NCBI RefSeq assembly: GCF_017315735.1 | Contig: NZ_JAFLRK010000004.1 | Location: 1-64,000 of the forward strand | DNA: 64,000 bases | Direction: 5' to 3' | Origin: Paracoccus shandongensis | Lineage (GTDB): Bacteria > Pseudomonadota > Alphaproteobacteria > Rhodobacterales > Rhodobacteraceae | In this document: one piece after another, positions 21,556 through 61,832 of the stretch | Numbering within the stretch: the stretch's first letter is position 1 | How the letters are laid out: each line of letters opens with the position of its first letter | The notes under the pieces: generated by a model | Databases searched by the model: none | What the model was told of the DNA's origin: nothing | Seen by the model: only the letters and a program-made list of their open reading frames with translations | Position numbers and translations under genes: made by a program

Positions 21556-22254
21556 ATGCGCATCGGCATCCTTCAATGCGGCCAGGCGCCCGCCGAATTG
21601 AAGCAGGACATGGGCGATTATCCCGATATGTTCGTCCGGCTTCTGGACGGGCGCGGCTTCGATTTCCGCACCTTTCACGTCGAGGCGATGGAGTTTCCCG
21701 CATCCGTCCATGACGCCGACGGCTGGCTGCTGACCGGATCGCGCCACGGCGCGTACGAGGATCACGCCTTCATCCCGCCGCTGGAACGCTTCATCCGCGA
21801 CGCCTATGACGCCGCCGTCCCCATGGTCGGCATCTGCTTCGGCCACCAGATCATCGCGCAGGCGCTTGGCGGCACGGTCGTCAAGCATCCGGGCGGCTGG
21901 TCGGTGGGCACGCATGACTATGACTTCGGTGGGGAAACCGTGCGGCTGAACGCCTGGCACCAGGATCAGGTGGTGGTCCTGCCCAAGGACGCGCAGGTCG
22001 CCGCCCGCACCGAATCCTGCGAAAACGCCGCGCTGGTCTATGGCGACCGGGCCTTCACCGTGCAGCCGCATCCCGAATTTTCCGACGCTTTCATCCAGGG
22101 CCTGATGGACAAGCGCGGCAAGGGCCTGGTCCCGCAGCCGCTTCTGGACCGCGCGTCCGACCGCATGGGCGAGCCGAAAGGATCCGCCGCCATCGCCGAC
22201 CGGATCGAGGCCTTCTTCAAGCAGCCCCGCGCCATCGCCAAAGGTGCCGCATGA
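21556..22254 (+). CDS. Class I glutamine amidotransferase-like hydrolase (PuuD-like role)
   Basis: A 232-residue protein with a full class I amidotransferase triad: Cys94 in GICFGHQ, His172 and Glu174 in QPHPEF. The fold resembles the GMP-synthase-type glutaminase domain. There is no synthase partner domain, so it is a free hydrolase. It overlaps by 4 bp with a PuuA-type gamma-glutamyl ligase and is co-transcribed with a PuuB-type oxidase. In Escherichia coli the puu pathway uses the class I hydrolase PuuD to release GABA from gamma-glutamyl-GABA, so this protein may take that step. That is inferred from context, as its sequence looks closer to GMP-synthase-like proteins than to PuuD. Confidence 0.82.
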   Translation: MRIGILQCGQAPAELKQDMGDYPDMFVRLLDGRGFDFRTFHVEAMEFPASVHDADGWLLTGSRHGAYEDHAFIPPLERFIRDAYDAAVPMVGICFGHQIIAQALGGTVVKHPGGWSVGTHDYDFGGETVRLNAWHQDQVVVLPKDAQVAARTESCENAALVYGDRAFTVQPHPEFSDAFIQGLMDKRGKGLVPQPLLDRASDRMGEPKGSAAIADRIEAFFKQPRAIAKGAA

Positions 22255-23606
22255 GCGACTGGATCGACAGGCTGCCCCAGGCCGCCCGCGACTTCGTGGC
22301 CGGCCGCCGGCTGGACGAGGTCGAATGCATCCTGGCCGACATCGCGGGCGTCGCGCGCGGCAAGGCCATGCCCGCGTCGAAATTCGCGCGCCAGGACAAG
22401 TTCTATCTGCCCAATTCCATCTTCCTGCAGACGATCACGGGGGAATGGGCCGACAACCCGGCGGGGGCCTTCACCGAACCCGACATGATCCTGACGCCCG
22501 ATTTCAGCACCGCGACCGCCGCGCCCTGGACCGCCGACTGGACGCTGCAGGTGATCCACGACGCCCATGACCAGCAAGGCAACCCGGTGCCCATCGCCCC
22601 GCGCAACGTGCTGAAGCGGATCGTGGCGCTTTACGCCGAAAAGGGCTGGAAGCCGGTCGTCGCGCCGGAAATGGAGTTCTTCCTGGTCGCCCGCAACATC
22701 GACCCGAACCAGCCGATCATTCCGCCGATGGGCCGCACGGGCCGCAGGGCGGCAGCCAAGCAGGCCTATTCGATGAGCGCGGTCGATGAGTATGGCAAGG
22801 TCATCGACGACATCTATGACTTTGCCGAGGCGCAGGGTTTCGAGATCGACGGCATCCTGCAGGAAGGCGGCGCGGGGCAGGTGGAAATCAACCTGAACCA
22901 CGGCGATCCTGTCGCGCTGGCCGACGAAATCTTCTATTTCAAGCGCCTGATCCGCGAAGCCGCGCTGCGCCACGACTGCTTCGCCACCTTCATGGCCAAG
23001 CCCATCGAGGGCGAGCCGGGCAGCGCCATGCACCTGCACCATTCGATCATCGACGCGAAAACGGGGCGGAACATCTTTTCCGATGAAAGGGGCGCGGAAA
23101 CCCCGCAGTTCCTGCATTTCATCGCCGGGATGCAGAAGCACCTGCCCGCCGCCGTGGCGCTGCTGGCGCCCTATGTGAACAGCTATCGCCGATACGTCCC
23201 CGACTTCGCCGCGCCCATCAACCTGGAATGGGGCCGCGACAACCGCACCACCGGCCTGCGCGTGCCGATTTCACCGCCCGAGGCGCGGCGGGTGGAAAAC
23301 CGGCTGGCGGGCATGGATTGCAACCCCTATCTGGGCATCGCCGCCAGCCTCGCCTGCGGCTATCTGGGCTTGGTCGAGGCCGAGAACCCTCGCGCGGAAT
23401 GCCTGGGCGACGCCTATATGTCCGAGGACGAGCTGCCCTATAACCTGGGCGACGCCTTGGACATTATGTCCGAAAGCGCCCCCATGCGCGGCGTTCTGGG
23501 CGAGGAGTTCACCGCCGTTTACGAATCCGTGAAACGCAACGAATACAAGGAATTCCTGCAGGTCATCAGCCCCTGGGAACGCGAACATCTGCTGCTGAAC
23601 GTATGA
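22251..23606 (+). CDS. puuA: Glutamine synthetase-family gamma-glutamyl-amine ligase (PuuA-like)
   Basis: A 451-residue glutamine-synthetase-fold ligase. The N-terminal beta-grasp region has VECILADIAGVARGKAMP. Catalytic-domain motifs include PEMEFFLVARN (metal site), GGAGQVEINLNHGDP, AMHLHHSI (ATP and metal histidines), NSYRRYVPDFAAPINLEWG and RVENRLAGMDCNPYLGIAA. There is no adenylylation NLYDLPPEE loop, unlike the true glutamine synthetase at 41890. The family glutamylates putrescine or other amines at the expense of ATP. Its coupling to a PuuB-type oxidase supports the PuuA role; the exact amine is not known. Confidence 0.88.
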   Translation: MSDWIDRLPQAARDFVAGRRLDEVECILADIAGVARGKAMPASKFARQDKFYLPNSIFLQTITGEWADNPAGAFTEPDMILTPDFSTATAAPWTADWTLQVIHDAHDQQGNPVPIAPRNVLKRIVALYAEKGWKPVVAPEMEFFLVARNIDPNQPIIPPMGRTGRRAAAKQAYSMSAVDEYGKVIDDIYDFAEAQGFEIDGILQEGGAGQVEINLNHGDPVALADEIFYFKRLIREAALRHDCFATFMAKPIEGEPGSAMHLHHSIIDAKTGRNIFSDERGAETPQFLHFIAGMQKHLPAAVALLAPYVNSYRRYVPDFAAPINLEWGRDNRTTGLRVPISPPEARRVENRLAGMDCNPYLGIAASLACGYLGLVEAENPRAECLGDAYMSEDELPYNLGDALDIMSESAPMRGVLGEEFTAVYESVKRNEYKEFLQVISPWEREHLLLNV

Positions 23607-38660: not shown

Positions 38661-41810
<3,150 letters not shown>

Positions 41811-41889
41811 CACAACAAGAACCATCCCAACAGGACTATCGCGCCCGGCACCGGAATGGCCGGGCCGCATCTACGCAGAAAGGGAAGAG

Positions 41890-43296
<1,407 letters not shown>

Positions 43297-46663: not shown

Positions 46664-47542
46664 TCAGTCCTCGGCCAGGATATCGACGCTGTGGCTGCCC
46701 GATTGCGACCCGGCCAGGCGCATGGATCCCGTGACGGGGGCCACGTCGCTGTAGTCGCGGCCATAGCCGATGGTGACGTGGTCCGCGGCCACGAAGCAGG
46801 CGTTGGTGGGGTCGTATTCGCACCAGCCCGCCTCGGCCCCGGTCCAGGCGCGGACCCAGGCGTGCATGGCGTCCGCCCCCTCCAGCCGGGGCTTGCCGGG
46901 CGGCGGGACCGTGCGCAAAAAGCCCGACACATAGGCCGCCGGAACGCCGATGCCGCGCAGGCCCGAGATCATGATCTGCGAGAAGTCTTGGCAGACGCCG
47001 TGCCGCCCGGCGAAGGCCTGGGCGATGGGGGTGTCCACCTCGGTGGCGTCGGCGTCGAAGCGCATGTGCGCGTGCAGCGCGCGGCCCAGGGCCTCGACCG
47101 CCTCGCGCACGGTCGCGGCATCGGCGCAGGCCTTGCGGGCGAAATCGGCGATGGGCGCCAGCAAGGGGATCCGGGGCGAGGCGCGCAGGAAATGATGGGG
47201 CGAATGGGGACCAAGGTCGGTGATGTCGTCGAGATCCTGGGGCAGGCGGTCCAGGCTGGCCGACAGGTCCAGTTCCGTTTCATCCGCAAGCCGCAGCACC
47301 CGGCCCGCCATGTCGAAGCGGATCTGCGTCAGCCCGGCGGGCAGGACCAGTTGCGTCACCTCGGTCCCGAAGAAATCGGTGAAGCGGCTGCGTTCCACGG
47401 GGGGCGGGGTGATGGTGATGCTGGTCTGCTGCACCTCTTGCACGCCGGGCAGGTCGGCGGGGCTGATGCGCAGAAGCTGCCGCCCCGCGCCGGTGGGGCG
47501 GGCGAAGTCATAGCGGATGGACAGGCGCAGGCGATACAGCAT
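46664..47542 (-). CDS. Transglutaminase-like cysteine protease-fold protein
   Basis: A 292-residue cytosolic protein: an N-terminal beta-rich bacterial transglutaminase domain (YRLRLSIRYDFARP) followed by a transglutaminase core. The catalytic triad is intact: Cys184 in GRHGVCQDFSQ, His227 in DAMHAWV and Asp244 in WCEYDPTN. There is no signal peptide. It overlaps by one base with the ATP-grasp/alpha-E gene, so it is the last gene of a three-gene operon. Such proteins were predicted in comparative genomic work to act with ATP-grasp ligases on peptides; whether this one cuts or joins amide bonds is not known. Confidence 0.85.
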   Translation of the reverse strand: MLYRLRLSIRYDFARPTGAGRQLLRISPADLPGVQEVQQTSITITPPPVERSRFTDFFGTEVTQLVLPAGLTQIRFDMAGRVLRLADETELDLSASLDRLPQDLDDITDLGPHSPHHFLRASPRIPLLAPIADFARKACADAATVREAVEALGRALHAHMRFDADATEVDTPIAQAFAGRHGVCQDFSQIMISGLRGIGVPAAYVSGFLRTVPPPGKPRLEGADAMHAWVRAWTGAEAGWCEYDPTNACFVAADHVTIGYGRDYSDVAPVTGSMRLAGSQSGSHSVDILAED

Positions 47543-49929
47543 CAGGACAGATAGCTGGCGGTCAGCAGGTCCGACAAGGCCGCGATCCGCCCGCGCAACT
47601 GCCACAGGGCATCGGTGGTCAGGCTGTCGGGATCGGTGGTGGCCAGCTTCGCGTGCAGGCGCAGAACCTCTCGGGCCAGGGGGGACAGGGCGCCGTGGTC
47701 GTTGGCGGCGGGCAGCATGTCCACCTGTTCGCGCAGGCTGTCGATCTGGTGGCGCAGCGCGCGCGGGTTCAGCGGATCCAGCGCCAGAAGGTCGATCACC
47801 GTCCCACGCGAGGCGCTGAAGGAAAAGCGGCGGCGGTGGGTCAGCACGCTGTCGCCGACCTCGATGGCCAGGTCCAGCGCGCCTTCGGGGGCGGCGGGGT
47901 CGCACAAGACCGCCAGCAGCGCGGCCGTGCCCATGGCGCGTTCGTGCAGCCGCCCGATGGTCAGGAAGCGCCAGCCGACGAAGCGGTACATGTTTTCATG
48001 CACCAGGCCCGAGATCCCCGCCAGCTTGCGCAGCAGCCTGGACAGCGCCCGGGCCGCGTCGTCGCCGGGCGCGACCCTGGGCGCCATGGCCCGTGCGGTG
48101 CGGTCGATGTCGTGCAGCGCGGACCAGGCGTCGGGGGAAAAGCGGTCGCGCACGCTGCTGGCGCTGCCGATGGCGGCGGCCAGGTTGTCCAGCAGCCTTT
48201 GCGGAATGGCCTGGGCGGGATCGATGCCCATCTGGCGGAACAGGGGATCGAACCCCGCCAGCAGGGGGCCGCCCGCCTTGCCCGATTCGGCCAGGCGGGT
48301 GTGATAGGCGCGCATCAGGCGCACGACCCCCTCGGCCCGTTCGGCATAGCGGCCCAGCCAGAACAGGTTGTCGGCCGCCCGCGCAGGCAAGCCGCCGGGC
48401 ACCAGGCGCTTTTCCGCGGCGGTGGCCTGGCGCGCCATGGTGATGGCCGGCACGGGACAGGGGCTGACGACCCAGACATCCGCCGCAGCGCCACCTTCCT
48501 GCATGGCGATGGCCGACACATCGTCGCCCGTCCCGATGCGCGCAAAGCCGCCCGGCATCACCGCCCAGCCATCGGCGGTGCGCGCCAGATAGACGCGCAG
48601 GGTCATGGGGCGCGGCACCAGCCTGCCTTCCACCAGGGCGGGGGTGGTGGACAGCGTTACGGCCTCTTGCGCGACAAGATCGCCGCCACCCTCGGCCAGC
48701 CGCCGGTCCAGCACGTCGGCGGGCAGTCCGACGGCGCGGGTCAGGTCGTCCTTGGGATCGAAGGGCAGGCGCGTGGTCAGCGCGTCGGCCAGCACCATCC
48801 GGCGCGGGCTGGCGCGCACCGCCGCGCGGGCGGATGGATCGCCGCACCACCAGGTCGCGATATTGGGCATGGCCAGGGGCGCGCGCACCAGTTCGGGCGC
48901 AAGCTGCGGCAGGAATGCCATCAGCGCCCGCGTTTCCAGGACGCCCGAGCCCAGGCAATTGACCATCGTCACCGATCCCGCCCGCAGCGCCGCGACCATG
49001 CCGGGCGTGCCGATGCGGGACGCGGGGTTCAGTTCCAGCGGATCGGCGTAATGCGCGTCCAGCCTGCGCCACAGCACATCGACCTGGCGCATCCCCTGGA
49101 CCGTGCGCACCATCAGCCGGTCGCCCGCCACGCCCAGGTCGTCGCCTTCCAGCAGGGCAAAGCCCAGGTAGCGCGCGATATAGGCGTGCTCGAAATAGGT
49201 CTCGTTCATGGGGCCGGGGGTCAGGATCGCGATGCGGCTGTCCGTGTCGCGGGCCTGGCCCTGCAAGGCGTCGCGGAAATCGCGGAAGAACCCGGCCAGG
49301 CGGTGGACATTCTCGTCCGGGTAGAATTCCGAAAACGCCCGCGCGGTGGCGACGCGGTTTTCCAGGGCATAGCCCGCGCCCGAGGGCGCCTGCGTCCGGT
49401 CGGCCAGCACCCACCATTCGCCGTCCGGGCCGCGCCCCAGTTCGAACGCCAGGAAATGCAGGAAATGCCCGCCCCGGGGCCTGACCCCCACCAAGGGGCG
49501 CAGCCATTCCGGGTTGCCCGCCACCAGCGCCGCAGGCAGCCGCCCCGAGGCGACCAGTTCGTTCGGGCCGTAAAGATCGGCCATCACCGCTTCCAGCAGG
49601 TCGGCGCGCTGGCGCAGGGCGCGGCTGATCCTGGACCATTCCTCCTCGGCCAGAAGGACGGGGATATGGCTCAGCGGCCAGGGACGCTCGACCGATTCGC
49701 CGCCGCCGTATTGGCGATAGAAGACGCCGCTATCCAGCAGGTGGCGGTCGGCGCGCGACAGGTCGCGGGTCAGGTCGTCGTCCGACAGCGCGTCCAGATG
49801 CGCCACCATCCGCCGCCACAACGGGCGGATGGTGCCGTCGGGGGCGATCATCTCGTCCGGGACGCCGGGCAGGGGGCGATAGCCCGCCGTGCGCGAGCGC
49901 CGCATCGCCGGGGCCGGCCCGCCCGCCAT
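47542..49929 (-). CDS. Circularly permuted ATP-grasp ligase fused to alpha-E domain
   Basis: A 795-residue protein with two modules. Residues about 1-505 are a circularly permuted ATP-grasp domain (DUF404/DUF407 type), with DLYGPNELVASG, RIAILTPGPMNETYFEHA, FALLEGDDLGV and LMVRTVQGMRQVDVLWRRLD. Residues about 510-795 are the helical alpha-E domain (DUF403), starting RAADNLFWLGRYAERAEGVV. ATP-grasp enzymes usually join a carboxylate to an amine. No carrier or substrate is obvious. It overlaps its neighbours by one base on each side (TGATG), showing tight coupling. In other genomes the two modules are often separate genes. Confidence 0.87.
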   Translation of the reverse strand: MAGGPAPAMRRSRTAGYRPLPGVPDEMIAPDGTIRPLWRRMVAHLDALSDDDLTRDLSRADRHLLDSGVFYRQYGGGESVERPWPLSHIPVLLAEEEWSRISRALRQRADLLEAVMADLYGPNELVASGRLPAALVAGNPEWLRPLVGVRPRGGHFLHFLAFELGRGPDGEWWVLADRTQAPSGAGYALENRVATARAFSEFYPDENVHRLAGFFRDFRDALQGQARDTDSRIAILTPGPMNETYFEHAYIARYLGFALLEGDDLGVAGDRLMVRTVQGMRQVDVLWRRLDAHYADPLELNPASRIGTPGMVAALRAGSVTMVNCLGSGVLETRALMAFLPQLAPELVRAPLAMPNIATWWCGDPSARAAVRASPRRMVLADALTTRLPFDPKDDLTRAVGLPADVLDRRLAEGGGDLVAQEAVTLSTTPALVEGRLVPRPMTLRVYLARTADGWAVMPGGFARIGTGDDVSAIAMQEGGAAADVWVVSPCPVPAITMARQATAAEKRLVPGGLPARAADNLFWLGRYAERAEGVVRLMRAYHTRLAESGKAGGPLLAGFDPLFRQMGIDPAQAIPQRLLDNLAAAIGSASSVRDRFSPDAWSALHDIDRTARAMAPRVAPGDDAARALSRLLRKLAGISGLVHENMYRFVGWRFLTIGRLHERAMGTAALLAVLCDPAAPEGALDLAIEVGDSVLTHRRRFSFSASRGTVIDLLALDPLNPRALRHQIDSLREQVDMLPAANDHGALSPLAREVLRLHAKLATTDPDSLTTDALWQLRGRIAALSDLLTASYLS

Positions 49930-52900
49930 CACACACCCGGGGCGCGCCGCAGATCCAGCGTCAGCGGGAATTCGCGGTGGATGCGCTCGGGCTGGATCCT
50001 TTGGTCGTGGCCGGGGCGGTGGCCATGGGGGCTGAAGCGGGCCAGCCTGCGCGCCTCGGCCTCGTTTCCGTTCACGGGGAAAGTGTCGTAATTGCGCCCG
50101 CCCGGATGGGCGACGTGATAAACGCAGCCGCCAAGGGGGCGGCCCGACCAGGTGTCGAAGATGTCGAAGGTCAGCGGCGCATCGACCGGCAGCACCGGGT
50201 GCATGGCCGATGCGGGCTGCCAGGCCTTGTAGCGCACCCCCGCCACGGATTCCCCCGCACCGATGGGGGTCAGCGGCACCGGGCGGCCATTGCACAAGAC
50301 CTGATAGCGCACGGGATCCGCCGCCGCCAATTTGACCTGCAACCGTTCGGTGGAACTGTCGGTATAGCGCACCGTGCCGCCGATCGCGCCGGTCTCGCCC
50401 AGGACGTGCCAGGGTTCCAGCGCCTGGCGCAGTTCCAGGTGGACGTTCTCGACCTCGACCTCGCCGCAGAAGGGAAAGCGGAACTCGGCCTGGGCCTTGA
50501 ACCAGTCCTCCTGCATGGGAAAGCCGTGGTCCGTCAGGTCGCGCAGCACGTCGCGGAAATCCCCCCACACGAAATGCGGCAGCATGAAGCGGTCGTGCAG
50601 CGCGGTGCCCCAGCGGGTCAGGTCGCCCGTCGCGGGTTCGCGCCAGAACCGCGCGATCAGCGCCCGCAGCAGCAGTTGCTGGGCCAGGCTCATCCGCGCG
50701 TCGGGGGGCATCTCGAAGCCCCGGAACTCGACCAACCCCAGGCGGCCGGTGGGGCCGTCGGGGGAATACAGCTTGTCGATGCAGATTTCCGCCCGGTGGG
50801 TGTTGCCGGTCACGTCGGTCAGGATGTTGCGCAGCAGCCGGTCGGTCAGCCAGGACAGGGGCGGCGTGCCTGCGCCGGGCGCGGGGATCTGCGCCAGCGC
50901 GATTTCCAGTTCATAAAGCGAATCGTGCCGCGCCTCGTCGATGCGCGGCGCCTGGCTGGTCGGCCCGATGAACAGGCCCGAGAACAGGTAGGACAGCGAG
51001 GGATGCCGGTTCCAGTGCCGGATCAGGCTGGCCAGCAGGTCGGGTCGGCGCAGGAAGGGGCTGTCGTTGGTGGTCGCACCCCCCACGACGACATGGTTGC
51101 CGCCGCCGGTGCCGGTATGCTTGCCGTCGATCATGAACTTTTCCGCGCCAAGCCGCGACTGGCGCGCGTCCTCGTAAACCCCTTGCGTGATCGCCACGCA
51201 GTCGTCCCAACTGGCGGCGGGGTGGATGTTCACCTCGATCACGCCGGGATCGGGGGCCACGCGGATCACGTTCAGGCGCGGGTCGTGGGGGGGCGCATAG
51301 CCTTCGACATGGACCTTCAGGTTCAGGCGCAGGGCCGCCGCCTCGACCGCGTGCAGCAGGTCCAGGTATTCCTCCAGCGTGGCCACGGGGGGCATGAAGA
51401 CGCAAAGCCGCCCACCTTTCGGTTCCACCGACAGGGCGGTGCGGACCATGCCCTGCAACTCGGCCTCTCCGGTGGGGGCGACCTGCTGCACCACGTCCTG
51501 GCCCGGCGTGTTGGCGACAAAGCTTGCCATGGCCTGGGTCTTGCGGTCGGGCGCGATGCTTCCCGGCTGGGCCAGGGGCGCGCGGTCCACCGTGGGATCG
51601 GTCGGGTTGATATAGGGATAAACCGATTCCGGCAGATGCGGCAGCGAGGCCAGGGGCAGCCGGTATCCGACGGGGCTGTCGCCTGGCACCAGGAACACAT
51701 GGCCCCGCCGCAACTGCCAGCGTTCGGAATGCCATTGCAGGCCCGCGCGCGACTGCCAGGCCTGGATCGGCAGCACGAAGCCCGTGGGCGTGGTCAGGCC
51801 GCGGTTGAAGACGGCGGCCAGGCGGTGGCGGGCCTCGGGGTCGGTCAGTTCGCTGTTTTCCGGCGTGACATTGGCGGGAAGGTTCGCTTCCTTGACCAGC
51901 CATTCGGCGGGATCCTCATAGGCGGGCAGCACGTTGTCGTCGGAAACGCCCAGTTCGGCGGCCATTTCCCGCAGCAGTTCCTGCGCCTGCAAGGGCGTCG
52001 CCGCGCCGGTGTCGGCTTCCCGCGCGATCAGGTCGGGGTTTTGCCAGACCGGCTGGCCGTCGCGCCGCCAGTACAGCGAGAAGGTCCATCGCGGCAGCGT
52101 CTCGCCCGGATACCACTTGCCCTGGCCGTAATGCAGAAAGCCGTTCGGGGCGAAGCGGTCGCGCAGCTTGCGGATCAGCACGTCGGCGCGGTCGCGCTTG
52201 GTCGGCCCCACGGCGTCGGTGTTCCACTCGGAGGCCTCGAAATCGTCGATGGACACGAAGGTGGGTTCGCCCCCCATGGTCAGCCGCACATCGCCTTCGC
52301 GCAGCGCCGCATCGACCTGGTGGCCCAGGCGGTTCAGGTCCGCCCAAGCCTCGTCGCTGAAGGGCCTGGTGATGCGCGGATGTTCGGCCACGCGGCGGAC
52401 CTGCATGTCGAAATGGAAATCGACCTCGGCAAAGCTGGCCGCGCCCGAGATCGGCGCGCAACTGCGGTAATGCGGCGCGGCGGCCAGCGGGATATGGCTT
52501 TCCCCCGCCAGCAGGCCCGAGGTCGGGTCCAGCCCGATCCAGCCCGCGCCGGGGATATAGACCTCGGCCCAGGCGTGCAGGTCGGTGAAGTCGTGGGCGG
52601 TCCCCGACGGACCGTCCAGCGCCTGCAGGTCGGGCTTCAACTGGATCAGGTATCCCGAAACGAACCGCGCGGCGAAGCCCAGGTGGCGCAGCGCATGGAC
52701 CAGCAGCCAGGTGGAATCGCGGCAGGATCCGCTTTTCGCGGTCAGCGTTTCCTCGGGCGTCTGCACGCCCGGCTCCATGCGGATCGTGTAAGCCGTGTCG
52801 CCCGCGATGCGGGCGTTCAGCGCCACGATGAAATCCACGGTGCGGGTCTTGGTCTTCGGGATGCTGTCCAGCAGCGCGCGCAGCATCGGCCCGGGGGTTT

Positions 52901-53261
52901 CGGTGGCGCGATAGGGGATCAGCTCCTCGGCCAGTTCGGGGGCATAGTCGAAGGGCCAGGTTTCGGCGCTGTCCTCGACGAAGAAGTCGAAGGGGTTGTA
53001 GACGGTCATGTCCGCGACCAGATCGACCTCGATCTTCAATTCGCGCACGGGTTCGGGAAAGACGAAGCGGGCCAGCCAGTTGCCGAAGGGATCCTGCTGG
53101 TGGTTCACGAAATGGCCGCCGGGCGCGACCTTCAGCGAATGGGACAGGACGCGGGTGCGCGAATGGGGCGCGGGGCGCAGGCGGATCACCTGGGGGCCAA
53201 GGACCACCGGGCGGTCGTACCTGTAATGCGTCAGGTGATAGATGCTGGCCTTGATCGACAT
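49929..53261 (-). CDS. Transglutaminase / DUF2126 putative amidoligase fusion
   Basis: A 1110-residue cytosolic protein. The N-terminal 290 residues are a transglutaminase module with an intact triad: Cys180 in SGSCRDSTW, His229 in DLHAWAE and Asp245 in GLDPTSG. The remaining ~800 residues are DUF2126, annotated in Pfam as a putative amidoligase, beginning [18 protein letters not shown] with [37 protein letters not shown] and [23 protein letters not shown]. The start at 53261 is the first ATG giving the family N-terminus [16 protein letters not shown]. It is the first gene of the operon with the ATP-grasp/alpha-E and second transglutaminase genes. The Anbu-type protease often seen with this set is not nearby. 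Confidence 0.87.
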
Positions 53262-54459: not shown

Positions 54460-54963
54460 ATGGCACAAACGGAAGCAATAATTCCGACCGATGAGATTCA
54501 TCCCATCGACATCGTCGAACTGGTGGCGGCCCATCACGACTGGGATTTCGACCGCCTGACCGACGACCAGATCGCCATGACGGTGGAGGGACAGTGGCGC
54601 AGCTATTCGCTGACGCTGGCCTGGTCCGCGCGAGAGGCGGTGCTGCGGCTGATCTGCACCTTCGATCTGGACCCGCCCGCCGACCGGATGCCCCCGCTTT
54701 ACGAGACGCTGAACCTTGCCAACGACCAGGTCTGGGACGGCGGCTTCACCTTCTGGTCCAAGCAGCGGCTGATGGTCTGGCGCTATGGCCTGGTGCTGGC
54801 GGGCGACGCCGTCGCCTCGGCCGAGCAGGTGGACCAGATGATCAGCAACGCGCTGGTCTCGTGCGAGCGGTTCTATCCGTCCTTCCAACTGGTTGCCTGG
54901 GGCAACAGCAGCCCCGCCGCCGCGCTGGACATCGCCCTGGGCGAGGCCTACGGACGGGCGTAA
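54460..54963 (+). CDS. YbjN domain-containing protein
   Basis: A 167-residue soluble protein with the YbjN fold, related to type III secretion chaperones. Recognisable parts are HPIDIVELVAAHHDWDFDRL, WRSYSLTLAWSAREAVLRL and ETLNLANDQVWDGGFTFWS. The function of stand-alone YbjN proteins in alphaproteobacteria is not established. The ATG at 54460 follows GCAGGA. In this family of bacteria the gene is commonly next to proC, as here. Confidence 0.85.
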   Translation: MAQTEAIIPTDEIHPIDIVELVAAHHDWDFDRLTDDQIAMTVEGQWRSYSLTLAWSAREAVLRLICTFDLDPPADRMPPLYETLNLANDQVWDGGFTFWSKQRLMVWRYGLVLAGDAVASAEQVDQMISNALVSCERFYPSFQLVAWGNSSPAAALDIALGEAYGRA

Positions 54964-54998
54964 GGGGCGCATGGCCCCGCTGTGACATGGGGGACCGG

Positions 54999-55811
54999 AT
55001 GGGCGATTTCGACGATATCAACGCGCGCGGGCTGGTGCTGGTCGGCTGCGGCCGGATGGGCGGCGCGATGCTGCGCGGCTGGCTGGCGCGGGGGCTTCGG
55101 GCGGATGCGGTCACGGTGATCGACCCGCGCCTGGCCCCCGAATGGCAGGACAAGGGCCTGCGCGTGAACGCCGCGCTGCCGGGCAATCCCGCCGTGCTGG
55201 TCCTGGCCGTCAAGCCGCAGATGATGGCGGATGCGCTTGGCACCCTGCCGGTGCTGGGCGACACGCTGGTCCTGTCGGTCGCCGCAGGCACCACCATCGC
55301 GACCTTTGAAACGGCCTTCCCCGGCGCCCCCATCGTCCGCGTCATGCCGAACACCCCCGCCGCCATCGGCCAGGGCATCAGCGCCATGATCGGCAACAGC
55401 CGCGCCACGCCCGCCCATCTGGATCTGGCCCAGACGCTGATGGCCGCCGTGGGCCGCGTGGTGCGGCTGGAGTCCGAGGACCAGATGGACGCGGTCACCG
55501 GCCTGTCGGGCAGCGGCCCGGCCTATGTCTTCCACCTGATCGAGGCGATGGCCAAGGCGGGCGAGGCGCAGGGCCTGCCCGCCGCCCTGTCCCTGGAACT
55601 CGCGCGCATGACCGTGGCGGGCGCGGGCGCGCTGGCGGTTCATGCCGACGAGGATCCGGCGAGCTTACGCGAAAACGTCACCTCGCCCGGGGGCACGACC
55701 GCCGCGGGGCTCAAGGTTCTGATGGACCCCGACACCGGCCTGGCGCCGCTGATGGCGCGCACGATTGCCGCCGCCACCGAACGCGGGCGCGAACTGGGGC
55801 GCGCGCAATGA
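54999..55811 (+). CDS. proC: Pyrroline-5-carboxylate reductase
   Basis: A 270-residue NAD(P)H enzyme, the last step of proline synthesis. The dinucleotide loop is VLVGCGRMGGAMLRG near residue 12, followed by AVKPQMMADAL, RVMPNTPAAIGQGISAM and the C-terminal substrate region VTSPGGTTAAGLKVL. I choose the ATG at 54999 because GGGGGA lies just before it; the ATG at 54987 adds four residues. The end overlaps the next gene by 4 bp. It runs opposite to the proline-catabolic putA further on. Confidence 0.95.
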   Translation: MGDFDDINARGLVLVGCGRMGGAMLRGWLARGLRADAVTVIDPRLAPEWQDKGLRVNAALPGNPAVLVLAVKPQMMADALGTLPVLGDTLVLSVAAGTTIATFETAFPGAPIVRVMPNTPAAIGQGISAMIGNSRATPAHLDLAQTLMAAVGRVVRLESEDQMDAVTGLSGSGPAYVFHLIEAMAKAGEAQGLPAALSLELARMTVAGAGALAVHADEDPASLRENVTSPGGTTAAGLKVLMDPDTGLAPLMARTIAAATERGRELGRAQ

Positions 55812-58433: not shown

Positions 58434-61400
58434 TCAGCCCGCCAGCAACGCGGCGTTTCCGCCCGCTGCGGTGGTATCGACGCAAAGATGGCGTTCATGG
58501 GCCACATGGGCAAGGTCGGGCAGGCCGGTGACAAGCTGCACGATCTCGCCATCCCGCGCGGCAAGGGCATTGGCATAGGCGCGGCCCTGCGCCTCGTCCC
58601 CCCACCAGAGAACGGCGGCCATGGCGGGCAGGCGGGTCAGGGCATCAGGCGGCAGGATGCCGTCCACGCCCACGGCATCCCCGCCAAGCGCCGCGACGGC
58701 GGCGACCTGTGCCGCGACCGTTTCCGAACCGGGCCCAAGGCAGAGGACCGGCGGTCGGGTATGCGCGGTCAGGCGGTTCAATTCCCCCGTGGGGCCGGGC
58801 ATCAGCCGCTCATCGATCTTGCGCGACACATGGGCGGCCAATTGGGCGCGGATGCGGTCCTCGCTGGCCTGGCCTTGCCAGTTGCCGCCCCCTGCCGCAG
58901 GCGTTTGTGGCGCAAAAAACCGGGGGACATAGCGCGGCCCGCCCGCCTTGGGTCCGGTGCCCGACAGCCCCTCGCCGCCGAAGGGCTGGCTGCCCACCAC
59001 CGCGCCGATCTGGTTGCGGTTCACATAGATGTTGCCGACATGGATCGCGTCCGAAACCTCTTGCACGCGCGAGTCGATGCGGGTGTGCAGCCCGAAGGTC
59101 AGGCCGAAGCCACGCGCGTTGATCTCGGCCACGACCTGGTCCAGCTTGTCGCCCTTGAAGGTGGCGACATGCAGGACAGGCCCGAAGATCTCGCGTTCCA
59201 GATCACTGATGCCGCCCACCCGCAGCATGGTCGGCGGGATGAAGGTGCCCTGCGCGGGCACGTCCAGCTTGTGGATCACGCGGTTGCCATTGGCGGCGAC
59301 ATAGCCCGCGATGTCGCCCTGCGCCGTGCTGTCGATCACCGGGCCCAAGTCGGTCGCCAGATCCCACGGATCGCCCACCACCAGTTCGTCCATCGCGCCC
59401 CGGATCATCTCGATCACATGGGGGGCGATGTCCTCCTGCACGTAAAGGCAGCGCAGGGCGGAACAGCGCTGCCCGGCGGACCGGAAGGCGCCGTTCACGA
59501 TGTCGCGCACTGCCTGTTCGGGCAGGGCGGTCGAATCGACGATCATCGCGTTCAGCCCGCCGGTTTCCGCGATCAGCGGCGTGCCGGGCGTCAGGTTCGC
59601 GGCCATGGTGCGCGCGATGGTCTGGGCGGTCGCGGTCGAGCCGGTGAAGACCACGCCCTTCACGCGGCGGTCCCGGGACAGGGCCGTGCCCACCACGCTG
59701 CCGCGTCCCGGCAGCAGTTGCAGCGCAGGCAGCGGCACGCCCGCCTGGTGCAGCAGCTTGACGCCCAGGGCCGCGATGATCGGGGTGGCCTCGGCAGGCT
59801 TGGCGATCACCGCATTGCCCGCCATAAGCGCCGCCGCGATCTGGCCGGTGAAGATCGCGAGCGGGAAGTTCCACGGGCTGATCGCGCCGACGATGCCGCG
59901 CGCGTGGCCAGAGTTCGTCTCGCCCTCAGCCGCGTAGTAGCGCAGGAAATCCACCGCCTCGCGCAGTTCGGCCACGGCGTCGGCCAGGGTCTTGCCCGCT
60001 TCCTTCGCCAGGATGCCGAAGATCGGGCCGAAGTTTTCCTCGTAAAGGTCGGCCGCGCGGCGCAGGACGGCGGCGCGATCCGCGGCGGGGGCGTCCCAGG
60101 GGCGGGCATCGTCTATGGCGCGGGCGGCGGTCGCGGCATCGGCCATCATCACCGTGGCCAGCCTGTCGCCCGTGGCGGGGTTCACCACGTCCTGCACCTG
60201 ACCCGCAGGCGGGGACACCGTTAGCGGCACCACATCGGACGGGGCCACGTCGCGGGCCGCGTTGATCCGGGCCAACGTCTGTTCGTCCGACAGGTCGAAC
60301 CCTGCCGAATTGCGCCGCGAGGCCCCGAACAGATCGGCGGACGCCAGCAGCGAGGCCGGAGCCTTGGCCGTCGCCAGCGCGTCAAAGGGATCGCGCGCGA
60401 CCTCCTCGGGCGTCACGCTTTCATCGACGATCTGGTTCACGAAACTGCTGTTGGCGCCGTTTTCCAGCAGGCGGCGCACCAGATAGGCCAGCAGGTCGCG
60501 ATGCGCGCCCACCGGCGCATAGATGCGGCAGCGGCCGCCCGTTTCGCGCAGCACGATGTCGTGCAGGCGTTCGCCCATGCCGTGCAGGCGCTGGAATTCG
60601 AAGCGGATGTCGCCCGCCATTTCAAGGATCGCGGCGACGGTATGGGCGTTGTGGGTGGCGAATTGCGGATAGATGCGGTCGGCATGGTCGATCAGCTTGC
60701 GGGCATTGGCGATATAGCTGACATCGGTCGCGACCTTGCTGGTGAACAGGGGGAAACCCGGATGGCCGTCCACCTGGGCGCGCTTGACCTCGCTGTCCCA
60801 ATAGGCGCCCTTGACCAGCCGCACCATGATGCGGCGGTCAAGCCGCACCGCCAGGTCGTGCAGCCAGTCGATGGTCTGGCCCGCGCGCTTGCCATAGGCC
60901 TGCACCACGACGCCAAACCCGTTCCAGCCGGCCAGAGAGGGGTCCGACAGAACCGCCTCGATCACCTTCAGCGACAGGACCAGCCGGTCCTGTTCCTCGG
61001 CGTCGATGTTCATGCCCATGTTCGCGGCCTTGGCGGCCTGCGCCAGCCGCAGCACCACCGGCACCAGCTCGCGCATCACGCGGGCCTCTTGTGCAACCTC
61101 GTAACGCGGATGCAGCGCCGACAGCTTGATCGAGATGCCGGGGTTCTGTTCGACCGACCCCTTGTCGCAGGCCTTGGCGATCGCCGCTATGGCATCGGCA
61201 TAGGCGCGTGCGTAACGCGCGGCATCCGCCCCCGTCATCGCCGCCTCGCCCAGCATGTCATAGCTGTAGGTGAAGCCCTGTTTTTCGCGCGCCCTCGCGC
61301 GGTCCAAGGCGTCGGTGATGGTCTGGCCCAGCACGAACTGGCGGCCCATCTCCTTCATCGCCCGGCCCACGGCGGTGCGGATCACGGGTTCCCCGAGGCG

Positions 61401-61832
61401 GCGGACCATGCGGCGCAGCGTGCCCGCCTGGTCGTCGTCCAGCACCTTGCCGGTCAGCATCAAGGCCCAGGTCGAGGCGTTGACCAGCGACGAGGACGCC
61501 TCGCCCAGGTGCTTGCCCCAGTCGGAGGGGGCGATCTTGTCCTCGATCAGGGCGTCGATGGTGATCTTGTCGGGCACGCGCAGCATCGCCTCGGCCAGGC
61601 ACATCAGGGCCACGCCCTCGCGGGTGGACAACCCGTATTCGGCCAGGAAATGCTCCATCAGCGAGGGGCGCGCCTTTGCCCGGATCTGGCGGACCAGGTC
61701 GGCGGCGCGGGCGGTGATGGCGGCGCGTCGGTCGGGGGACAGGGCGGCCCCTGCCGTCAGGCGTTCCAGAAGCTGCCTTTCATCCGCGAACTTGGCTTCG
61801 GTGGAAAAGACGCTGGAAGCAACGGGGGCCAT
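58434..61832 (-). CDS. putA: Bifunctional proline dehydrogenase / P5C dehydrogenase PutA
   Basis: A 1132-residue flavoenzyme that oxidises proline to glutamate in two steps. The PRODH barrel covers about residues 70-460 (GINIDAEEQDRL-like region reads GMNIDAEEQDRL; VRLVKGAYWDSEVKRA). The aldehyde dehydrogenase covers about 520-1000, with the catalytic cysteine in SAGQRCSALRCLYV and SGTGPKAGGPRYVPRF near its end. A further C-terminal domain follows, as in longer PutA types. No N-terminal ribbon-helix-helix DNA-binding domain is present, so the protein is not its own repressor. The ATG at 61832 follows AAGGAGA. It diverges from an Lrp-type gene. Confidence 0.96.
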   Translation of the reverse strand: MAPVASSVFSTEAKFADERQLLERLTAGAALSPDRRAAITARAADLVRQIRAKARPSLMEHFLAEYGLSTREGVALMCLAEAMLRVPDKITIDALIEDKIAPSDWGKHLGEASSSLVNASTWALMLTGKVLDDDQAGTLRRMVRRLGEPVIRTAVGRAMKEMGRQFVLGQTITDALDRARAREKQGFTYSYDMLGEAAMTGADAARYARAYADAIAAIAKACDKGSVEQNPGISIKLSALHPRYEVAQEARVMRELVPVVLRLAQAAKAANMGMNIDAEEQDRLVLSLKVIEAVLSDPSLAGWNGFGVVVQAYGKRAGQTIDWLHDLAVRLDRRIMVRLVKGAYWDSEVKRAQVDGHPGFPLFTSKVATDVSYIANARKLIDHADRIYPQFATHNAHTVAAILEMAGDIRFEFQRLHGMGERLHDIVLRETGGRCRIYAPVGAHRDLLAYLVRRLLENGANSSFVNQIVDESVTPEEVARDPFDALATAKAPASLLASADLFGASRRNSAGFDLSDEQTLARINAARDVAPSDVVPLTVSPPAGQVQDVVNPATGDRLATVMMADAATAARAIDDARPWDAPAADRAAVLRRAADLYEENFGPIFGILAKEAGKTLADAVAELREAVDFLRYYAAEGETNSGHARGIVGAISPWNFPLAIFTGQIAAALMAGNAVIAKPAEATPIIAALGVKLLHQAGVPLPALQLLPGRGSVVGTALSRDRRVKGVVFTGSTATAQTIARTMAANLTPGTPLIAETGGLNAMIVDSTALPEQAVRDIVNGAFRSAGQRCSALRCLYVQEDIAPHVIEMIRGAMDELVVGDPWDLATDLGPVIDSTAQGDIAGYVAANGNRVIHKLDVPAQGTFIPPTMLRVGGISDLEREIFGPVLHVATFKGDKLDQVVAEINARGFGLTFGLHTRIDSRVQEVSDAIHVGNIYVNRNQIGAVVGSQPFGGEGLSGTGPKAGGPRYVPRFFAPQTPAAGGGNWQGQASEDRIRAQLAAHVSRKIDERLMPGPTGELNRLTAHTRPPVLCLGPGSETVAAQVAAVAALGGDAVGVDGILPPDALTRLPAMAAVLWWGDEAQGRAYANALAARDGEIVQLVTGLPDLAHVAHERHLCVDTTAAGGNAALLAG

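What the first reader, a model, noticed from the sequence alone, without database searches (positions are those of the whole stretch)
46664..53261. Three-gene transglutaminase / ATP-grasp / amidoligase operon of unknown product
Seen: three genes joined by one-base overlaps, together carrying two transglutaminase cores with complete Cys-His-Asp triads, one circularly permuted ATP-grasp module, one alpha-E module and one DUF2126 module. Known: comparative genomics predicted that such sets build or modify peptides through amide-bond chemistry, but no product is established that I know of. Inference: the set makes a peptide tag or small peptide metabolite, with the transglutaminase parts trimming or transferring it. 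It is the strongest candidate here for an undescribed pathway.
Basis: partly seen in the sequence, partly recalled or inferred. Interest (0 to 1): 0.7.

Follow-up and report, generated by a model that had tools for sequence, protein, structure and literature searches.

The report
Amide-ligase operon with dead ATP-grasp
Three linked bacterial genes carry two protease-like domains, one intact-looking amide-bond-making enzyme and one ATP-grasp enzyme whose active site has been lost, and they appear to depend on a second, intact gene set elsewhere in the genome that is switched on by nitrogen starvation in some other bacteria.

Summary
The three genes are real and placed as described (46664-53261, minus strand, TGATG overlaps). 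The gene set is a known, predicted and uncharacterised kind. What changes the reading is that the circularly permuted ATP-grasp half of the middle protein is probably not a working ligase. It keeps the glutathione-synthetase fold but has lost the metal- and ATP-binding residues of its standalone paralog: none of 107 fused homologues examined keeps the key Asn or more than 3 of 8 catalytic markers, while 44 of 45 standalone homologues keep all 8. The window's genome carries that standalone paralog on another contig, in a canonical ATP-grasp/alpha-E/transglutaminase/Anbu operon. All 120 DUF2126-positive genomes among 398 proteobacteria have a CP-ATP-grasp gene; 114 have two or three. Outside the window's class both sets often sit side by side. 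Sigma-54-type promoters precede 12 of 46 standalone ATP-grasp genes, though not this strain's; published work shows NtrC control elsewhere. Best reading: an add-on to the Anbu-type system in which DUF2126 (glutamine-synthetase-like) and the distant standalone ATP-grasp do the ligation, the dead ATP-grasp/alpha-E is a non-catalytic partner, and the transglutaminase-like domains cleave or transfer. Product unknown.

The parts
49929..53261 (-). Protein 1: transglutaminase-like domain + DUF2126 (1110 aa)
52524..52874 (-). Transglutaminase core of protein 1 (residues 130-246; C180, H229, D245)
   Evidence: fold match 3isr Z 21.8
49947..52430 (-). DUF2126, predicted glutamine-synthetase-like amidoligase (residues 278-1105)
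47542..49929 (-). Protein 2: CP-ATP-grasp fused to alpha-E (795 aa)
48535..49662 (-). ATP-grasp half (residues 90-465), catalytic residues lost (A176, R178, R334, A381, R387, K393, A475, A483 at the eight marker columns; the last two lie just past the Pfam boundary)
47548..48390 (-). Alpha-E half (residues 514-794), W524/R527/R531 invariant in the 51 rows of alignment A3
46664..47542 (-). Protein 3: stand-alone transglutaminase-like protein (292 aa; C184, H227, D244)

Best explanation
The operon is an add-on module to the Anbu-type ATP-grasp/alpha-E/transglutaminase system. DUF2126 is an ATP-dependent ligase of the glutamine-synthetase/gamma-glutamylcysteine-synthetase kind. It joins an amino acid or amine to a carboxylate of a peptide or protein and works together with the intact standalone ATP-grasp encoded elsewhere (contig C7 in this genome). 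The fused ATP-grasp/alpha-E protein is a pseudoenzyme: it keeps the glutathione-synthetase fold but no longer forms an acyl-phosphate, and serves as a binding or regulatory partner (for example a heteromer with the standalone ATP-grasp/alpha-E pair, or a holder of the acceptor peptide). The two transglutaminase-like domains cleave or transfer the amide product, and Anbu, where present, finishes its breakdown. In Burkholderia cenocepacia and Pseudomonas putida the system is switched on by nitrogen limitation. Shown here: gene order, domain content, loss of catalytic residues, co-occurrence and linkage, promoter enrichment. Inferred: the pseudoenzyme's role, the substrate, and the division of labour.
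For: Residues: 8 markers of the standalone family (E161, N163, K322, K369, G375, G376, N460, K468, numbering of the C7 protein): 44 of 45 standalone rows keep all 8 (the other, cut short, keeps 6); of 90 fused rows 46 keep 0, 28 keep 1, 15 keep 2, 1 keeps 3. A second set of 17 fused proteins keeps 0-3, and two standalone ones from the same fetch keep 8. N163 is lost in 90 of 90 and 17 of 17 (rows are not all independent). Fold: the model (pLDDT 89.9) matches 3n6x (Z 42.3) and glutathione synthetases (Z about 24). Clade: 50 of the 90 fused rows and all 45 standalone rows each form one side of a branch, SH-aLRT 100. Dependence: 398 proteobacterial genomes, DUF2126+ 120: one CP-ATP-grasp gene in 6, two in 107, three in 7, none in 0; DUF2126- 278: none 180, one 87, two 11. 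190 alphaproteobacteria: 27 of 29 DUF2126+ genomes also have the standalone type; the two misses are 84% and 74% complete. Linkage: for the 88 of 120 genomes whose standalone place was listed, it lies within 10 kb of DUF2126 in 27 of 47 outside the window's class; also in Burkholderia multivorans and Acidithiobacillus caldus. DUF2126: Z 8-9.4 to many glutamine synthetases; E676, N678, H723, R773, E845, R847 invariant in 50 of 50. Regulation: sigma-54-like sites score >=7 of 8 before 12 of 46 standalone genes, 0.23% in shuffles; NtrC/sigma-54 control of I35_5080-83 in B. cenocepacia (PMC5491218, passages); nitrogen induction and likely NtrB/NtrC control of PP_2685-2688 in P. putida (PMC7801951, passages).
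Against: No biochemistry was found for any DUF2126 or fused protein. The fused protein keeps R276 (87 of 90), R431 (89 of 90), D469 (89 of 90) and the fold, so an unusual chemistry is not excluded. Marker equivalence to characterised glutathione-synthetase-fold enzymes rests on motif spacing and fold: profile alignment to E. coli Gss failed. The glutamine-synthetase match of DUF2126 is modest (Z 8-9.4 on a model of pLDDT 77.9; hhalign E 0.0032 but probability 9.9%). Co-occurrence counts are not corrected for phylogeny. 7 of 29 DUF2126+ alphaproteobacteria have no fused gene and 5 of 27 fused genes occur without DUF2126, so neither strictly needs the other. In the window's own class the two sets are rarely neighbours: 0 of 41, 5 of 29 in the other class sample. 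No sigma-54 or NtrC-like site was found before the window operon or its C7 partner, so nitrogen control is not shown for this strain; before DUF2126 itself only 8 of 100 starts score >=6.
Confidence: 0.6

Rival explanations
1. One reading: the operon by itself is a peptide-tag or small-peptide pathway driven by its own ATP-grasp.
For: The glutathione-synthetase fold is kept, and the ATP-grasp protein of the Yersinia bercovieri Anbu operon, which I take to be a standalone-type relative (not tested), releases phosphate from ATP (PMC6376114, passages).
Against: Catalytic residues are lost in all 107 fused homologues examined; all 120 DUF2126 genomes in the phylum sample carry a CP-ATP-grasp match in the standalone score range; no small conserved tag gene beside the operon: largest small-ORF cluster 7 of 79 loci.
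Confidence: 0.1
2. The fused ATP-grasp is active with a rebuilt site: the conserved motif around residues 175-184 (D-R-T-Q-A-P-S-G type) replaces E-x-N and supports a different reaction or nucleotide.
For: The replacement motif is itself conserved (R at the N163 column in 79 of 90, Q at the R165 column in 71 of 90), which neutral decay would not give.
Against: The glycine-loop region is variable in sequence and length, and its lysine is gone in 78 of 90 rows; the model is less sure there (residues 391-400, mean pLDDT 64; blocks 1-10, 71-80, 471-480 and 501-510 are low too).
Confidence: 0.12
3. The system is catabolic: under nitrogen limitation it breaks down peptides or proteins for nitrogen, and ligation is secondary or absent.
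For: Anbu, transglutaminase-like (papain-fold) proteins and, in 12 of 104 sources searched, a Peptidase_Mx metallopeptidase gene lie in these regions; the Anbu structure paper favours degradation (PMC5666114, passage); nitrogen induction.
Against: DUF2126 and the standalone ATP-grasp both keep ligase-type residues, and the standalone ATP-grasp is more tightly tied to DUF2126 than Anbu is (27 of 29 against 21 of 29).
Confidence: 0.15

Closest known systems
Anbu operon (ATP-grasp, alpha-E, transglutaminase-like, Anbu)
   Same: Same domain families; the window's genome also has this operon on contig C7.
   Different: Window operon has no Anbu, fuses ATP-grasp to alpha-E with the active site lost, and adds a DUF2126 ligase and a second transglutaminase-like protein.
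Rv2566-type transglutaminase + carboxylate-amine ligase proteins (DUF2126; PMC2588565, passage)
   Same: Protein 1 has the domain architecture described there.
   Different: No difference in architecture seen; residue conservation, dependence on the standalone ATP-grasp and linkage were added here. Rv2566 itself was not fetched.
Glutathione / homoglutathione synthetase, Gsp synthetase, YgiC/YjfC, Cp1B (E-64 ligase)
   Same: Fold of the ATP-grasp half (Z about 19-25).
   Different: The E-x-N metal motif and glycine-loop lysine that I equate with those of this family are missing in the fused protein.
Methylobacillus flagellatus Mfla_0391, PDB 3n6x
   Same: Closest solved structure (Z 42.3).
   Different: 3n6x carries the intact standalone motifs EDNxRxPSG, KEVxGSGGYG and NSSQGGGTKDTW (alignment).

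Membership tests
Anbu operon | ATP-grasp, alpha-E and transglutaminase-like domains encoded together | tested here: met
Anbu operon | Anbu gene in the same operon | tested here: not met
   The next gene after 46664 is a GntP permease; the only Anbu match of the genome is on C7
Active CP-ATP-grasp ligase | Glutathione-synthetase-type ATP-grasp fold | tested here: met
Active CP-ATP-grasp ligase | E-x-N metal residues, glycine-loop lysine and GG, N..K of the standalone family | tested here: not met
Glutamine-synthetase-like carboxylate-amine ligase (DUF2126) | Pfam DUF2126 profile | tested here: met
   1320 bits
Glutamine-synthetase-like carboxylate-amine ligase (DUF2126) | Glutamine-synthetase fold | tested here: inconclusive
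   Many glutamine synthetases at Z 8-9.4, model pLDDT 77.9; hhalign E 0.0032, probability 9.9%
Glutamine-synthetase-like carboxylate-amine ligase (DUF2126) | ATP-dependent amide formation | not testable with these tools
   needs purified protein
Transglutaminase-like superfamily | Cys-His-Asp triad | tested here: met
   50 of 50 and 73 of 73 rows
Pup-like protein tagging | Small conserved tag protein encoded beside the ligase | tested here: not met
   Small ORFs of 25-120 aa within 1.2 kb: no cluster in more than 7 of 79 loci; a tag encoded elsewhere is not excluded
Sigma-54/NtrC regulon | -24/-12 site or NtrC palindrome before the operon | tested here: not met
   No sigma-54 site with up to 1 mismatch within 2 kb upstream of 53261 (nearest 55393; 4 in the window, 6.1 expected); C7 gene not among those scoring above 4; no NtrC palindrome with 9 or more of 12 matches within 400 bases of either. 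Met for 12 of 46 standalone ATP-grasp genes

The most novel reading that the evidence does not exclude
A nitrogen-stress-induced peptide-tagging machine without a gene-encoded tag: two different active ligases (DUF2126 and the standalone ATP-grasp) build an isopeptide mark on proteins, the dead ATP-grasp/alpha-E fusion is the adaptor that presents substrate or gates the active ATP-grasp, the transglutaminase-like domains edit the mark, and Anbu destroys marked protein.
Probability: 0.1. Interest if true: 0.92.

Novelty: new variant of a known kind. Interest (0 to 1): 0.55.

Why it matters
Anbu was named in 2008, and the two structure papers of 2017 that I saw in passages still list no substrate or confirmed role for its operon (PMC6376114, PMC5666114). 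If the ATP-grasp of the window's operon is a pseudoenzyme and the set depends on the standalone ATP-grasp, then single-protein activity tests on the fused protein are aimed at the wrong component. The right test is a reconstitution of DUF2126 with the standalone ATP-grasp/alpha-E pair, guided by nitrogen limitation. That makes a long-standing open question directly testable.

Tried and rejected
Own ATP-grasp as the driver: rejected on residues. A gene-encoded small tag beside the operon: not found. Conserved flanking genes as clues: the largest cluster of neighbouring ORFs spans 29 of 80 loci, on both sides and strands, and looks like an ABC-transporter ATPase by its first letters; the 30 printed clusters were not annotated further. 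One recurrent neighbour is a Peptidase_Mx metallopeptidase, in 12 of 104 sources. Sigma-54 or NtrC site before the window operon: none. Profile alignment of both ATP-grasp families to E. coli Gss for residue numbering: no usable match. Search of solved structures with the standalone profile gave 3n6x and one chance match. Alpha-E fold: helical-bundle matches only (NasR, bd oxidase, Z about 9), not taken as a relationship. NCBIfam gave no family for the three proteins. The 2009 comparative-genomics paper (Iyer et al., doi 10.1039/b917682a) and Valas & Bourne 2008 were not held, so I cannot say whether the inactivity was noted there; searches on DUF2126 (0 papers), alpha-E/ATP-grasp/transglutaminase (3 papers), the DUF names (51 papers, 40 listed, listings only) and 'inactive ATP-grasp' with related names, two terms at least (0 papers) turned up no such statement in what I saw. 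A Caulobacter NtrC paper mentions only an unrelated transglutaminase homologue, hvyA (PMC10274813, passage). Outside Proteobacteria the residue test was not made.
Full report
OBSERVATION. The window carries three minus-strand genes at 53261-49929, 49929-47542 and 47542-46664, joined by TGATG. Pfam gives Bact_transglu_N + Transglut_core + DUF2126; CP_ATPgrasp_2 (and CP_ATPgrasp_1) + Alpha-E; Bact_transglu_N + Transglut_core. At E <= 0.1 the only PDB sequence relatives were 3n6x for protein 2 and 6g49/6g4h for protein 1. Both transglutaminase triads are invariant.

CONSERVATION. In one search, 69 of 80 hold DUF2126, fused ATP-grasp/alpha-E and transglutaminase in this order, 6 are cut by a contig end, and 5 lack the partners although sequence is there. 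Gaps between the genes are usually small (median 13 bases, 70 loci; median 1.5, 68 loci; largest 634 and 253). Within the window's genus DUF2126 is patchy: 22 of 81 genomes, one of them in pieces.

THE ATP-GRASP IS DEGENERATE. The window's genome has a second CP-ATP-grasp gene, standalone, on contig C7, followed by alpha-E, a transglutaminase-like gene and Anbu. Aligning the two types shows that many residues invariant in the standalone family are lost in the fused family (31 standalone rows, 70 fused rows). With a larger set (45 standalone, 90 fused; the fused proteins of L178 and L194 were not picked up by that script), 44 of 45 standalone rows keep all eight markers and one cut-off row keeps 6; fused rows keep 0 (46), 1 (28), 2 (15) or 3 (1). 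A further 17 fused proteins from alphaproteobacterial genomes, four of them from genomes without a DUF2126 match, keep 0 to 3; two standalone ones from the same fetch keep 8. N163 is missing from all 107; some of these rows are near relatives of each other. Motif spacing equates E161-x-N163 with the E-x-N of the glutathione-synthetase fold. In Cp1B, alanine substitution of R139, D141, E163 or N165 abolished or significantly weakened activity (PMC12568646, passages), and in T. brucei glutathione synthetase K363 and K428 (human K305 and K364) are expected to bind the ATP phosphates (PMC2845819, passages). The equation is inference: profile alignment to E. coli Gss failed. The fold itself is kept (model pLDDT 89.9; 3n6x Z 42.3; glutathione synthetases about 24), and in a tree of 50 of the 90 fused and the 45 standalone rows each type is one side of a branch. 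So this is an old, maintained pseudoenzyme rather than recent decay; that it has a function is inferred from its conservation.

DUF2126. The model (pLDDT 77.9) matches 3isr over the transglutaminase part (Z 21.8) and a long row of glutamine synthetases over about 296-1057 (Z 8 to 9.4). A profile comparison with 17 glutamine synthetase proteins placed PGVIEVN against the EVAPSQHELG region and GTGGGNHV against GSGMHV (E 0.0032 but probability 9.9%). The DUF2126 residues concerned are invariant in 50 of 50 rows. This agrees with the 2008 assignment of the family to the carboxylate-amine ligase superfamily (PMC2588565, passage).

DEPENDENCE. In 398 proteobacterial genomes, 120 have DUF2126; all 120 have at least one CP-ATP-grasp gene and 114 have two or three. 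Of 278 without DUF2126, 180 have none, 87 one, 11 two (5 of the 218 genomes with a match are below Pfam's cut-off and were counted). The best match in each of the 120 has E <= 4.4e-157, in the standalone range (the strongest fused match in the class set was 2.5e-154), but residues were not checked genome by genome. In 190 alphaproteobacteria, with fused and standalone told apart by frame length and score: DUF2126 29, fused 27, standalone 68, Anbu 54; DUF2126 with standalone 27 of 29 (misses G099 and G127, 84% and 74% complete); fused with standalone 24 of 27 (third miss G069, 78% complete); DUF2126 with fused 22 of 29; DUF2126 with Anbu 21 of 29; Anbu with standalone 54 of 54. Relatedness was not corrected for.

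LINKAGE. It lies within 10 kb of DUF2126 in 27 of 47 genomes outside the window's class and in 0 of 41 inside it. In the other class sample it is near in 5 of 29 (G035, G042, G091, G157, G169). I fetched 20 DUF2126 loci (one from the class, 19 from elsewhere in the phylum); they were picked after, 12 of them among the 27 near ones, so they show anatomy, not rate: 20 of 20 have the fused gene and the transglutaminase genes, and 14 of 20 hold the standalone ATP-grasp and/or its alpha-E, two with Anbu. Burkholderia multivorans has standalone ATP-grasp, alpha-E, transglutaminase, DUF2126, fused gene and transglutaminase in a row. Acidithiobacillus caldus mpAca1.1 has DUF2126, standalone ATP-grasp and alpha-E, two Anbu-like genes (one found by Pfam, the other by BLAST only) and ntrC and glnL in one stretch, and no fused gene there.

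REGULATION. Sigma-54-like sites scoring >= 7 of 8 lie within 300 bases upstream of 12 of 46 standalone ATP-grasp genes (6 of 31 class loci, 6 of 15 loci linked to DUF2126; the own-genome gene is counted twice as L006 and L136, and L116 and L117 are near-identical); shuffles give 0.23%. Published: in B. cenocepacia the cluster I35_5080-83 falls 2^6 to 2^9.4-fold in an ntrC mutant (PMC5491218, passages). That I35_5083, called a large transglutaminase-like protein, is DUF2126 is my inference from the B. multivorans order. In P. putida PP_2686-2688 rise under nitrogen limitation and are thought to be under NtrB/NtrC (PMC7801951, passages). No such site was found for the window operon or the C7 operon. 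glnA lies 3.4 kb from the operon (41683-43296), which may be coincidence.

MECHANISM. Most likely DUF2126 and the standalone ATP-grasp make an amide bond on a peptide or protein, the fused pseudoenzyme holds or gates, and the transglutaminase-like domains edit. Shown: parts, residues, co-occurrence. Inferred: roles and substrate. The only biochemistry seen for the wider system is phosphate release from ATP by the Y. bercovieri ATP-grasp, with no stable complexes and no Anbu peptidase activity found (PMC6376114, passages), and a report that recombinant Rv2569c has protease activity, inhibited as a serine and not as a cysteine protease (PMC11081392, passages; that Rv2569c is a transglutaminase-like homologue is recalled, and the inhibitor result speaks against a Cys triad there).

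VERDICT. I could not check whether the 2009 comparative study already noted the inactivity.

Noticed in passing
L006 5099-9267 (own genome contig C7:39098-43266): Canonical operon of standalone ATP-grasp, alpha-E, transglutaminase-like and Anbu genes in the window's own genome.
   Followed up: yes
window 41683-43296 (+) and 22251-23606 (+): Two glutamine synthetase family genes in the same window as the operon; a PutA-type proline dehydrogenase (58434-61832) and a pyrroline-5-carboxylate reductase (54594-55811) are close too.
   Followed up: no
L072 8721-9896, L045 13328-14473 and ten other loci: A zinc-ribbon Peptidase_Mx metallopeptidase gene lies in the same locus as DUF2126 in 12 of 104 sources; the window's genome has one on another contig (C56:81559-82263).
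   Followed up: partly
L197 (Acidithiobacillus caldus mpAca1.1, record 15477-36182): ntrC and glnL genes, two Anbu-like genes, an amidase and transposases surround a DUF2126 locus in which the transglutaminase and DUF2126 parts are separate frames.
   Followed up: partly
G608 C1 (genus search): A broken DUF2126 copy in pieces at two places of one genome of the same genus.
   Followed up: no
L244-L247 (G012, G057, G044, G073): The degenerate fused ATP-grasp/alpha-E gene with a transglutaminase gene but no DUF2126 match in the genome.
   Followed up: partly
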